Shown piece by piece: positions 8,936-10,843 of a stretch of DNA of 45,510 bases. This DNA is from Erysipelotrichaceae bacterium. Lineage in GTDB: Bacteria; Bacillota_I; Bacilli_A; Erysipelotrichales; Erysipelotrichaceae. The position numbers were made by a program, and so were the translations under genes. The notes beneath the pieces are model-generated. The model saw only the letters and a program-made list of their open reading frames with translations, searched no databases and was not told the origin of the DNA. Positions within the stretch are counted from its first letter, which is position 1. Each line of letters begins with the position of its first letter. The DNA lies in the NCBI GenBank assembly GCA_017397025.1, contig JAFQKG010000178.1, positions 1 to 45,510 of the forward strand, given 5' to 3'.

Positions 8936-9358
8936 TTCCACAGGAAATCTATAAGAAAATCAGAGGTAAAAAAGTTATCCACAGGATAAAATTGAAATAA
9001 TGCTTTTAAATAGTATGTTTTTTAAAGTTTTCCACAATATCCACATCTTTTATTATGTGGATAAATTGTTGATAACTTTGTTAACATATATTAAATGTGG
9101 ATAATTGTGGATAAAAATAAATTAACCACATCTTTATTAACATTCTAATGATTAAATATTTCCCAAGAAATAAGGACTATTTAAGTTTTTCAACATATCC
9201 ACATATTGTGGATAAACTCTATTTGTGGAATGTGGATAGGGTGTGGATAATCATTTTAATTACAACGATGAAATAAATATTTATCAACAATACTTTACAT
9301 ATTTCTATAGATTGTGGATAATTCATAATAAATGGATTAAAATAAGTGTTAGGATGTG
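8936..9358. other. oriC: oriC: dense DnaA-box array upstream of dnaA
   Basis: This 420-nt gene-free stretch has seven perfect DnaA boxes: TTATCCACA at 8975-8983 (+), and on the minus strand 9056-9064, 9096-9104, 9106-9114, 9207-9215, 9242-9250 and 9313-9321. Near matches are at 9028-9036, 9037-9045, 9068-9076, 9195-9203, 9231-9239 and 9281-9289. The boxes at 9096 and 9106 are spaced 10 bp, one helical turn. The rest is strongly AT-rich. Position next to dnaA makes this the upstream half of a bipartite origin; dnaA's own promoter is presumably inside it but cannot be pinned down. Confidence 0.93.
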
Positions 9359-10063
9359 ATGATAATAATGAAAAAGACATTTGTATTTTTTCTTTTATTT
9401 TGCTGTTTTGGATGTACTGCAGAAAATAAAATTCTTTCAACCTCAATAAAAAACATAAATATCATTGAAAAAGCATCAACAATTGAAATAGACATTATTG
9501 ATTTAGAAAGTTTTGATTCAATTCAAATTTTAGTGAATAAAAATCATTCTCTTCCTGAAGATTATGAACCAAAAGATTTGATTGAACCAAATGTCAGTAC
9601 AACAAAAAAATTATTTGTTAGAGAAGTATTGCATGATGATTTAATGGAGATGTTTAAAGAAGCAGAGAATGATGGTGCTTATCTTAGTATTTCAAGTGGA
9701 TATAGATCTTACCAATATCAAAAAACACTTTTCAACAATTATGTAGCACGTGATGGTATTGAAGCAGCCAGTAGATATAGCGCCAGACCAGGACAAAGTG
9801 AACACCAGACAGGTTTAGCGCTGGATATTGCAGCAAAAAGTGGAAAATGTACTTTAAGCAGCTGTTTTAAAGAAACAGATGAAGGAAAATGGCTGAATGA
9901 AAATGCATGGAAATATGGCTTTATTTTAAGATATCCTGAAGGAAAAGAAGAAATTACGGGATATATGTTTGAACCTTGGCATTTTCGCTATGTTGGGAAG
10001 AAAGAAGCAAAAAAAATATTTGAATCAGGATTAACAGTAGAAGAATACTATGATGTAAAATAA
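9359..10063 (+). CDS. D-alanyl-D-alanine carboxypeptidase family lipoprotein (VanY-like)
   Basis: Predicted zinc peptidase trimming the peptidoglycan stem peptide at the cell surface, 234 aa. An N-terminal lipoprotein signal (MKKTF, hydrophobic run, CCFGC) precedes a spacer and the M15B VanY domain, with SGYRSYQYQ, the metal motif SEHQTGLALD (SxHxxGxAxD) and EPWHFRYV with the catalytic Glu/His. The start is uncertain: AGGA at 9351-9354 is near ATG 9359, but the signal peptide proper begins at ATG 9368. It is the first gene on the plus side of the origin and is probably a housekeeping enzyme, not a vancomycin-resistance gene, as no vanRS or vanHA neighbours exist. Confidence 0.88.
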   Translation: MIIMKKTFVFFLLFCCFGCTAENKILSTSIKNINIIEKASTIEIDIIDLESFDSIQILVNKNHSLPEDYEPKDLIEPNVSTTKKLFVREVLHDDLMEMFKEAENDGAYLSISSGYRSYQYQKTLFNNYVARDGIEAASRYSARPGQSEHQTGLALDIAAKSGKCTLSSCFKETDEGKWLNENAWKYGFILRYPEGKEEITGYMFEPWHFRYVGKKEAKKIFESGLTVEEYYDVK

Positions 10064-10091
10064 AAACTATGTCATTTTGACATAGTTTTTT
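10064..10091. terminator. Bidirectional terminator
   Basis: An 11-bp stem AAACTATGTCA / TGACATAGTTT (10064-10074 with 10078-10088) with a T run on the plus strand and an A/T flank on the other side. It separates the convergent carboxypeptidase and AT-hook genes. Confidence 0.8.
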
Positions 10092-10779
10092 AATGAATCT
10101 GATTAATTTTTCCATTCTTATCTGCAAGAAGAACACTGAAGTTTAATTTATCTTTTAATACTTTAGGATATTCATTCCATTGTCTTCGATAACTGAGTGA
10201 GTCATTAAAAGCAATACTATATAGTGCTTCTTCACCAATCATTTCAGAGAGAATGTGATTGATTTTAACAGGAAGTTTTTGCTTTCTTCCTCTTTGGGAT
10301 CCCTGAACACTGATAATCCATAATTGATCATCTTTTATAGCTCTAAGAAATGAATTTTGTGATTCCACTGTCCACCCTCTTTCTTCTAACCAAAGGGTAA
10401 TCAATTCTTTTAAATCATCTGTTGTGCGATTGATTTTCATCATTCTTGCACGTTTTTTTTCTTCTTCTGTTTTAGTTGGTCTTCCGCGTTTTTTTGCCGG
10501 AAACAAATTGTTTCGATTTTCAAGATGATCAACATAATAACGAACTTTTAAACGACTTCCAAATCCAGTTTGACCCCTTGGAGTGTCAATAATTTCATCG
10601 CCTTCAAGCATTAATTTATAAATTGCCTGACAGCATGTTGGCATAGTTGCATGTTCAGGAGAAATAATGTTATGCAAATCACGTGAACTGATTTCAATGT
10701 ATTGTTTTCCTTCCTGATGGGCTTTAAATTTGATTTCTTGTAAATAATTAATATATTCTTTAATTCCTGGTCCTTTCAT
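10090..10779 (-). CDS. Unrecognised protein with AT-hook motif next to oriC
   Basis: I do not recognise the family. The 229-aa product starts at ATG 10779 (an upstream GTG at 10788 is poorly spaced from any SD). Residues about 25-85 (ISSRDLHNII through GFGSRLKVRYYV) could be a winged-helix-like fold. Next comes a strongly basic segment with the AT-hook core KRGRPTK near residue 97-103 and KKRARMMK, and later QRGRKQKLP around 163. The C-terminal part (ALYSIAFNDSLSYRRQW) is mixed alpha/beta. No signal or membrane segment is seen. DNA binding is likely from the AT-hook and charge; its role is unknown. Its promoter overlaps two direct TTTCGAC repeats. Confidence 0.75.
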   Translation of the reverse strand: MKGPGIKEYINYLQEIKFKAHQEGKQYIEISSRDLHNIISPEHATMPTCCQAIYKLMLEGDEIIDTPRGQTGFGSRLKVRYYVDHLENRNNLFPAKKRGRPTKTEEEKKRARMMKINRTTDDLKELITLWLEERGWTVESQNSFLRAIKDDQLWIISVQGSQRGRKQKLPVKINHILSEMIGEEALYSIAFNDSLSYRRQWNEYPKVLKDKLNFSVLLADKNGKINQIH

Positions 10780-10807
10780 GAAACTCACTCTCTTTCTTGT
10801 TGAATGT

Positions 10808-10843
10808 ATTGTATGATAGGTGCAGAGTCGAAATGTGTCGAAA
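10808..10843 (-). promoter_or_regulatory. Promoter with tandem TTTCGAC repeats
   Basis: On the minus strand TACAAT (10808-10813) is a -10 box for the AT-hook gene. The -35 position is poor, but two direct repeats TTTCGAC (10827-10833 and 10837-10843) with 10-bp period cover it, so a DNA-binding protein probably acts here. Confidence 0.5.

What the first reader, a model, noticed from the sequence alone, without database searches (positions are those of the whole stretch)
10090..10843. AT-hook protein encoded next to oriC
An unrecognised protein with the classical eukaryote-style KRGRPTK AT-hook and a second RGRK motif is immediately beyond the VanY gene, within 2 kb of the DnaA-box array. AT-hook proteins binding AT-rich minor groove near an origin would be candidates for origin structuring or regulation of replication or nucleoid organisation. 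The function is unproven.
Basis: partly seen in the sequence, partly recalled or inferred. Interest (0 to 1): 0.5.

Follow-up and report, generated by a model that had tools for sequence, protein, structure and literature searches.

The report
Spo0A-linked AT-hook protein of spore-formers
A previously unnamed DNA-binding-type protein, encoded near the replication origin of a gut bacterium, turns out to be carried almost exactly by those members of its family that have the spore-formation master switch Spo0A, and its gene has that switch's binding site in its promoter, so it is probably a new early sporulation factor.

Summary
In detail: a 229-aa basic protein (window 10093-10779, minus strand) beyond VanY, 1.15 kb from dnaA. 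Its AT-hook (KxRGRPxK) is invariant in 32 of 32 orthologues aligned, and RGR of the second motif too. Pfam, NCBIfam, PHROGs and PADLOC hold no family for it. AlphaFold2 predicts a winged-helix-like N-domain, the AT-hook linker, and a PD-(D/E)XK-fold C-domain lacking the canonical catalytic lysine.

Adjacency to dnaA is local to this genus and one sister genome. Elsewhere the gene mostly sits by yabP-yabQ-divIC, often head-to-head with an HNH endonuclease gene, 15-193 kb from dnaA where both share a contig.

The main finding lies elsewhere. Among 272 family genomes the gene is in 39, strong Spo0A in 39, and 38 are the same genomes; both exceptions are incomplete. An exact Spo0A box (TTCGACA) lies upstream in 35 of 35 genomes tested, against 1 of 478 control upstreams. 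Most likely this is a lineage-specific early-sporulation DNA-binding protein under Spo0A control. Whether it shapes the chromosome, regulates genes or restrains replication is not shown. My searches listed no paper that describes it.

The parts
10090..10779 (-). ORF of the 229-aa AT-hook protein (pI 9.4, 26.9 kDa), ATG start, stop included
   Evidence: MKGPGI start invariant in 32 of 32
10516..10779 (-). N-terminal domain, residues 1-88, read as winged-helix-like (H-E-H-H-E-E); relatives occur free-standing (~100 aa) and at the end of a DUF6884 protein
   Evidence: AlphaFold2 pLDDT 92.7, pTM 0.83; best structural matches a Rep protein 8ac8 Z 6.5, RepE54 6.1, VanR 5.8, CtsR 5.6, all below 8
10471..10494 (-). 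AT-hook KKRGRPTK, residues 96-103, in the linker
   Evidence: K96, R98-P101 and K103 invariant in 32 of 32
10093..10422 (-). C-terminal domain, residues 120-229, predicted PD-(D/E)XK fold without the canonical catalytic signature
   Evidence: (XisH 2inb Z 10.1, rmsd 2.7, 105 aligned)
10282..10293 (-). second basic motif RGRK, residues 163-166, loop after the third strand of the C-domain
   Evidence: RGR 32 of 32, RGRK 29 of 32
10836..10842 (-). distal Spo0A box TTCGACA (reverse complement of TGTCGAA), 22 bp before TACAAT
10826..10832 (-). proximal Spo0A-like box TTCGACT, 12 bp before TACAAT; exact TTCGACA at this place in G001 and G002
10808..10813 (-). -10-like TACAAT (an alternative TATCAT at 10813-10818 lies 17 bp from the distal box read as a -35)
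10062..10090 (-). intrinsic terminator-like hairpin between the convergent VanY and AT-hook genes
8975..9321 (.). DnaA-box array between dnaA and VanY (neighbour, not part of the gene)

Best explanation
The gene encodes a lineage-specific early-sporulation DNA-binding protein of the Spo0A-bearing members of one Erysipelotrichales family. Shown by computation: near-perfect co-occurrence with Spo0A, an exact Spo0A box in the promoter, an invariant AT-hook, a predicted winged-helix-like domain, and a predicted PD-(D/E)XK fold without its canonical catalytic lysine. Inferred: phosphorylated Spo0A switches the gene on at the start of sporulation; the protein, perhaps a dimer through its nuclease-fold domain, grips AT-rich DNA with the AT-hook in the minor groove and the winged helix in the major groove. 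Its most likely task (about 0.45 given the rest) is to organise or mark the chromosome for spore formation, as RacA (recalled) or RefZ do in Bacillus; gene regulation is nearly as likely (about 0.35). The position near oriC looks inherited from the yabPQ-divIC neighbourhood and is not by itself evidence of acting at the origin.
For: Of 272 family genomes: gene 39, strong Spo0A_C 39, both 38; exceptions G635 (66% complete) and G739 (79% complete). The gene's presence changes at least 5 (best 7) times on a DnaA tree. TTCGACA at -46 to -64 in 35 of 35 upstreams against 1 of 478 controls, and in none of 17 upstreams of its shorter or distant relatives. The same exact box, in either orientation, lies near the start of spoIIGA in 9 of 26 loci with a called ORF. 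The genome's own Spo0A aligns to the solved Spo0A DNA-binding domains without gaps (E 2e-51 and 4e-51). Neighbours YabP, YabQ and DivIC are confirmed by Pfam. AT-hook invariant in 32 of 32. Spo0A box TGTCGAA: passages of PMC5295017 and PMC3485338. spo0A presence goes with sporulation gene content in gut Firmicutes, this family included: passages of PMC8340488.
Against: The box lies 12 bp from the -10, closer than in spoIIGA (21 bp in the three measured), and could repress rather than activate. The window's own spoIIGA upstream has no exact box. The cut between strong and weak Spo0A was chosen after seeing the gap; counting all hits over Pfam's cut-off adds 12 Spo0A-like genomes without the gene. 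Only 5 independent contrasts are forced by supported branches (p 0.0625). The gene was not found in 24 genomes of the sister family or outside the family in the samples, so it is not needed for sporulation in general; Spo0A was not tested in the sister family. I have no expression, binding or knock-out data. Domain orientation is uncertain (pTM 0.56).
Confidence: 0.68

Rival explanations
1. It is a transcription regulator of early sporulation genes: the winged helix reads a specific operator, the AT-hook strengthens binding, and it tunes genes behind Spo0A. This shares the Spo0A link with the best explanation and differs in the output.
For: Winged-helix-like N-domain with weak structural likeness to the regulators VanR and CtsR (Z 5.8 and 5.6); free-standing relatives of the N-domain exist; head-to-head gene pairs are common for regulators (the generality is recalled). 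A GCGTG or GCGGG stretch just before the box in 17 of 35 upstreams could be a second operator.
Against: That stretch is missing in 18 of 35, the window's genus included, where a second Spo0A-like box stands instead. An AT-hook and a nuclease-fold domain are unusual for a simple repressor (recalled).
Confidence: 0.3
2. Origin regulator: the protein binds AT-rich DNA at oriC and, when made at sporulation, blocks re-initiation or holds the origin, doing the job of SirA or Spo0A itself in Bacillus.
For: Gene within 193 kb of dnaA in 18 of 18 same-contig genomes; AT content of 8942-9355 is 76% against 65% for the window; SirA, made under Spo0A~P, restrains DnaA in B. subtilis, and Spo0A~P itself binds oriC (passages of PMC5295017).
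Against: The neighbourhood is explained by the yabPQ-divIC operon in most loci. In G026 contig lengths put the gene at least about 149 kb from dnaA, and in four genomes of genus g58 it stands beside genes that read by eye as gatCAB. Genes need not lie near their targets. No exact TTCGACA lies in 8942-9355. No binding data.
Confidence: 0.15
3. It is a leftover or accessory of a restriction or defence module: winged helix plus nuclease fold, paired with an HNH endonuclease that it represses or guides.
For: An HNH_2 gene is adjacent and divergent in 25 of 25 genomes having both. A relative of the N-domain ends a DUF6884 protein and another lies just before an ORF that by eye resembles DUF262/GmrSD proteins on a plasmid. 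The C-domain fold resembles XisH and, more weakly, restriction enzymes.
Against: 14 of 39 genomes keep the AT-hook gene without this HNH subfamily, the window's genus among them, and 10 have the HNH gene alone. No PADLOC hit. Defence genes would not be expected to track Spo0A this tightly.
Confidence: 0.12
4. The TTCGACA box is the protein's own operator (self-control), not a Spo0A site.
For: The box is far better conserved here than by spoIIGA (35 of 35 against 9 of 26).
Against: It is letter for letter the known Spo0A box (passages read), it occurs by spoIIGA in some of the same genomes, and the gene is absent where strong Spo0A is absent, one incomplete genome apart.
Confidence: 0.1

Closest known systems
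RefZ (B. subtilis; passages of PMC6657595 read)
   Same: DNA-binding protein made early in sporulation under sigma-H and Spo0A~P; acts on the chromosome and on septum placement
   Different: RefZ is a TetR-family protein; this one has a winged-helix-like domain, an AT-hook and a PD-(D/E)XK-fold domain. No target sites are known here.
SirA (B. subtilis; passages of PMC5295017 read)
   Same: made under Spo0A~P control
   Different: SirA acts on DnaA by protein contact; the window protein matches no Pfam family at E 10
XisH, fdxN element excision controlling factor (PDB 2inb, 2okf)
   Same: predicted fold of the C-domain (Z 10.1 and 9.7)
   Different: no sequence family match, canonical catalytic lysine absent here, extra N-domain and AT-hook
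AT-hook proteins (Pfam PF02178) and bacterial AT-rich DNA binders such as Lsr2, Rok and MvaT (search listing only)
   Same: RGRP core of the AT-hook; the RGR-type motif of Lsr2 is recalled
   Different: single AT-hook in a linker of a two-domain protein; below Pfam's cut-off

Membership tests
AT-hook protein | basic RGRP core flanked by K or R | tested here: met
   K96-x-R-G-R-P-x-K103 invariant in 32 of 32 orthologues
AT-hook protein | passes Pfam PF02178 gathering score | tested here: not met
   14.0-15.1 bits against 17.4 in three orthologues; no hit for the window copy or P0008
AT-hook protein | binds AT-rich minor groove | not testable with these tools
   needs gel shift or structure
PD-(D/E)XK nuclease superfamily | alpha-beta-beta-beta-alpha-beta core fold | tested here: met
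   predicted order H-EEE-H-E-HH-EE; XisH Z 10.1, rmsd 2.7 over 105; AF2093 Z 9.2; a model, not a solved structure
PD-(D/E)XK nuclease superfamily | catalytic D and (D/E)XK on the second and third strands | tested here: not met
   residue 157 is N21 D5 E3 plus others, 159 is Q26 H4 E1 Y1, lysine in 0 of 32. Placement was judged from the model's strands, not by superposing active sites; a migrated lysine (K172 invariant, K162 in 23 of 32) is not excluded.
XisH family | sequence match to a known Pfam family | tested here: not met
   0 Pfam families at E 10 for the window copy; that Pfam holds a XisH model is recalled
Spo0A regulon | 0A box TGTCGAA in the promoter | tested here: met
   35 of 35 upstreams; 1 of 478 controls in the same orientation, 9 of 478 in the other
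Spo0A regulon | Spo0A present in the genome | tested here: met
   38 of 39 genomes; the miss is 79% complete
Spo0A regulon | expression changes with Spo0A | not testable with these tools
   needs RNA-seq or reporter
RefZ family | all-helical TetR fold | tested here: not met
   models have strands in both domains
SirA family | sequence match to a known Pfam family | tested here: not met
   0 Pfam families at E 10 for the window copy; that Pfam holds a SirA model is recalled
Nucleoid-associated or origin-binding protein | binds the chromosome or oriC in cells | not testable with these tools
   needs ChIP-seq

The most novel reading that the evidence does not exclude
A restriction-type module (winged helix plus a nuclease fold that lost its canonical catalytic residue, beside an HNH nuclease) was domesticated by spore-forming Erysipelotrichaceae as a Spo0A-switched chromosome protein, an independent invention doing the work of RacA, RefZ or SirA: holding or silencing origin-proximal AT-rich DNA while the spore chromosome is set up.
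Probability: 0.25. Interest if true: 0.8.

Novelty: new variant of a known kind. Interest (0 to 1): 0.58.

Why it matters
Spore formation helps many gut bacteria survive and spread, and this family has lost it several times (passages of PMC8340488). A gene that comes and goes with Spo0A and carries a perfect Spo0A box is a ready target for study and a possible marker of spore-formers. If it manages the chromosome, it would show that different spore-formers use different DNA-binding proteins for one step, and that a nuclease fold can be retired into another role.

Tried and rejected
Family libraries gave nothing above chance for the window copy: Pfam 0 families, NCBIfam one hit of 13 bits against a cut-off of 150, PHROGs two hits at E 0.20 and 0.23, PADLOC none. 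The Pfam HSDR_N match of one orthologue (E 0.0046) is below its cut-off and was used only as a hint of the nuclease fold. PDB sequences: one match at E 0.65 to ARM1, taken as chance.

Phage origin: no match in 50,697 phage records with the whole protein or with the related N-domain piece of L075; in viral contigs 36 pattern hits, none a relative; two plasmid records matched, over the N-domain (the longer match runs on into the next ORF). The annotated surroundings of the second told nothing. Viral structure library: no match at E 0.001.

The box-plus-spacer-plus-TANAAT pattern was sought in six genomes to find other genes with the same promoter. Of 10 hits 5 are this gene, in 5 of 6 genomes; the other 5 are fewer than the 25 of the reversed-pattern control, and the two whose surroundings were read showed by eye no known sporulation gene. 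G000 has no exact match because its proximal box ends in T.

TTCGACA alone is not rare in the window (8 against 4.8 expected); only its place upstream of this gene is unusual.

The shorter N-domain proteins and the distant paralogues of G009 do not carry the box (0 of 17 read).

A Rep protein and RepE54 top the N-domain list (Z 6.5 and 6.1), but all Z are below 8; not used as evidence of a replication role. Foldseek alone found no match to the N-domain at E 0.001.

Tree: 71 rows. Two fetched DnaA loci (G563, G261) were dropped because a sequence motif used to pick the frame was missing, and four of 42 genomes gave no DnaA hit. In the pair test the same label was given as both traits, because the gene and strong Spo0A coincide on the 68 family rows (three or more of the non-carriers bear weak Spo0A_C matches); Spo0A was not tested in the three outgroup rows.

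Mended: the Rep proteins' names, the spoIIGA wording, the stretch before the box, the migrated-lysine caveat and several 'all' or 'most'.

Full report
What is there. It runs on the minus strand from ATG 10779 to the stop at 10090, 229 residues, pI 9.4. The GTG at 10788 is an unlikely start, since MKGPGI from the ATG is invariant in 32 of 32 aligned orthologues. It lies beyond VanY (Pfam E 6e-46), with which it converges on a terminator-like hairpin at 10062-10090, and 1.15 kb from dnaA. Seven TTATCCACA boxes lie at 8975-9321. It is single copy in its genome.

Family and domains. Pfam, NCBIfam, PHROGs and PADLOC have no family for it. Full-length relatives were found only in the window's own taxonomic family: 39 of 272 genomes at E 1e-30, one of them (G412) a partial match. 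Full-length matches in the class sample (395 genomes) and the phylum sample (392 genomes) were all in that family too; a few genomes of other families matched over the N-domain only. The 24 sister-family genomes among 60 relatives had no match at E 0.001. Of the 8 named relatives, 6 are labelled Erysipelotrichaceae or Erysipelotrichales, one Eubacterium and one only 'Bacterium'. AlphaFold2 on 15 sequences gave mean pLDDT 88, pTM 0.56; the N-domain alone on 19 sequences gave 92.7 and 0.83. I read the N-domain as winged-helix-like; its best structural matches (a Rep protein 6.5, RepE54 6.1, VanR 5.8, CtsR 5.6) are too weak to name a family. The C-domain has the PD-(D/E)XK order of elements and matches XisH (Z 10.1 and 9.7) and AF2093 (Z 9.2). 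At the expected catalytic place on the third strand lysine occurs in 0 of 32 sequences, so cutting is unlikely; the place was read from the model, and a lysine that has moved (K172 is invariant) is not excluded. K96, R98-P101 and K103 of the AT-hook are invariant; RGR of the second motif is invariant too, in the loop after the third strand.

Is it tied to the origin? Coordinates give the distance to dnaA where both genes share a contig, 18 of 39 genomes: 1.1, 1.3, 1.4, 2.6, 6.4, 15, 16, 26, 27, 28, 28, 37, 38, 46, 69, 72, 82 and 193 kb. Two of these are one-contig genomes (G009, 3.88 Mb, 72 kb; G561, 2.49 Mb, 193 kb). In 18 other genomes dnaA is on a different contig and in 3 it was not found. 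So the gene tends to be origin-proximal, but among these 18 only the window's genus and G032 have it within 7 kb. The neighbourhood explains this: in 22 of 32 distinct loci a YabP, YabQ or DivIC gene lies within 5 kb upstream on the same strand; the other ten include three of the window's genus, five of genus g58, and one at a contig's end. This operon is about 70 kb from oriC in B. subtilis (recalled). G003 and G032 show DivIC, this gene, VanY and dnaA in one short stretch, an intermediate to the window's arrangement. In four g58 genomes the gene sits beside genes that read by eye as gatCAB, and in G026 contig lengths place it at least about 149 kb from dnaA.

The HNH neighbour. An HNH_2 endonuclease gene (Pfam E 2e-12 in the two tested) lies head-to-head with it in 19 of 32 loci. 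In the 272-genome search (E 1e-40) 25 of 39 carriers have this HNH subfamily, always adjacent and divergent by their coordinates (gap about 100-480 bp, 1.8 kb in G013), 14 lack it, and 10 genomes have the HNH gene alone. The window's genus lacks it. The two genes may share control, but neither needs the other.

The Spo0A link. Upstream of the start codon in 35 of 35 genomes examined (of 39; G412, G699, G735 and G739 were not extracted) lies an exact TTCGACA, at -46 to -64; from a TTCGAC box to a -10-like TA(C/T)(A/T/G)AT the spacer is 11-12 bp in 31 of 35 (in G000 this is the box that ends in T). The same stretch upstream of 478 other ORFs of at least 100 aa in these loci held TTCGACA once and its reverse complement nine times (ORFs were called by length, so some starts are wrong). 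TTCGACA is the reverse complement of TGTCGAA, the Spo0A box core (passages of PMC5295017 and PMC3485338). Four genomes (G000, G001, G002, G032) have two TTCGAC boxes 10 bp apart; 17 of 35 have instead a GCGTG or GCGGG stretch just before the box, whose meaning I do not know. In some of the same genomes spoIIGA, a classical Spo0A target, has the exact box in either orientation near its start: 9 of 26 loci with a called ORF (in two of these the box falls after an over-long called start; the window's own spoIIGA has none), 21 bp from the -10 in the three measured. The genome's Spo0A aligns over its DNA-binding domain to the two solved Spo0A structures without gaps, the stretch TTASRVERAIRHAIEVAW identical.

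Co-occurrence. Pfam Spo0A_C has a strong match (E 1.4e-31 or better) in 39 of the 272 genomes; the gene is in 39; 38 are shared. The exceptions are G635 (Spo0A only, 66% complete) and G739 (gene only, 79% complete). Twelve more genomes have weaker Spo0A_C matches (E 1e-20 to 3e-24) and one (G689) a match under the cut-off, all without the gene. The cut between strong and weak was set after seeing the gap. Of 42 genomes searched for spoIIGA, 26 of 36 carriers matched at E 0.001 (18 over Pfam's cut-off), and 0 of 5 weak-Spo0A genomes and G635. On a DnaA tree of 71 rows the gene needs 7 changes, at least 5 on well-supported branches, in step with strong Spo0A on the 68 family rows; 5 independent pairs give p 0.0625, so the tree agrees with parallel change but is short of proof. 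Browne and colleagues (passages of PMC8340488) report that Erysipelotrichaceae hold spore-formers and former spore-formers in several clades and that spo0A presence goes with sporulation gene content in 98.9% of 1358 genomes. The shorter relatives of the N-domain do not follow this pattern: they occur in carriers and non-carriers, and none of 17 shorter or distant relatives checked has the box.

How it most likely works. Shown: the Spo0A box, the co-occurrence, the invariant AT-hook and the predicted folds. Inferred: Spo0A~P acts at this promoter, probably as an activator because outside the window I see no clear -35 element and the gene is missing where Spo0A is missing; the product binds AT-rich DNA; the nuclease-fold domain serves binding or pairing. 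Whether the outcome is chromosome shape, gene regulation or restraint of replication cannot be told from sequence. RefZ (passages of PMC6657595) and SirA show that Bacillus uses Spo0A-controlled proteins at this stage, but they are of other families.

Origin of the protein. A relative of the N-domain also ends a protein that begins with DUF6884, and another stands just before an ORF resembling (by eye) DUF262/GmrSD proteins on plasmid CP017949. With the XisH-like C-domain and the HNH neighbour this hints at descent from a restriction-like module; that is inference.

In print. Searches of the paper library for AT-hook with bacterial nucleoid terms, AT-hook with Spo0A (one unrelated paper), AT-hook motif with Erysipelotrich- and spore terms, Erysipelotrichaceae with Spo0A, Clostridium innocuum with Spo0A and Erysipelotrichia with sporulation genes listed no paper that by title or abstract start describes this gene. 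Only passages of six papers were read, and supplementary tables were not searched.

Noticed in passing
L075 304-1677 (-) (G135); same domain found in a 467-aa frame of G077 (L076): A 457-aa protein with DUF6884 at its start, a middle part that by eye resembles GIY-YIG nucleases, and a relative of the N-domain at its end: a possible undescribed restriction-like fusion.
   Followed up: partly
L090 5998-6243 (plasmid CP017949.1): A relative of the N-domain alone as an 81-aa protein directly before an ORF, not in the gene table shown, that by eye resembles DUF262/GmrSD proteins.
   Followed up: partly
L104 8741-9784 (-) and 24 other genomes: HNH_2 endonuclease subfamily head-to-head with the AT-hook gene in all 25 genomes of 272 that have both; the HNH stretch is well conserved.
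   Followed up: partly
G009 (L023, L030); G547, G698, G699, G700: Second, divergent full-length copies of the protein (26-30% identity in G009); the two of G009 lack the Spo0A box.
   Followed up: partly
L013-L022, L024-L029: A free-standing ~100-aa version of the N-domain occurs in many genomes of the family, including ones without strong Spo0A; function unknown.
   Followed up: partly
G748, G752, G010, G759, G761 and relatives (genera g8, g25, g249): Weak Spo0A_C-like proteins without the AT-hook gene, and no spoIIGA match in the 5 of them tested: possibly repurposed regulators.
   Followed up: no
upstream of the AT-hook gene in 17 of 35 genomes: A GCGTG or GCGGG stretch within 12 bp before the Spo0A box, absent in the window's genus; unexplained.
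   Followed up: no
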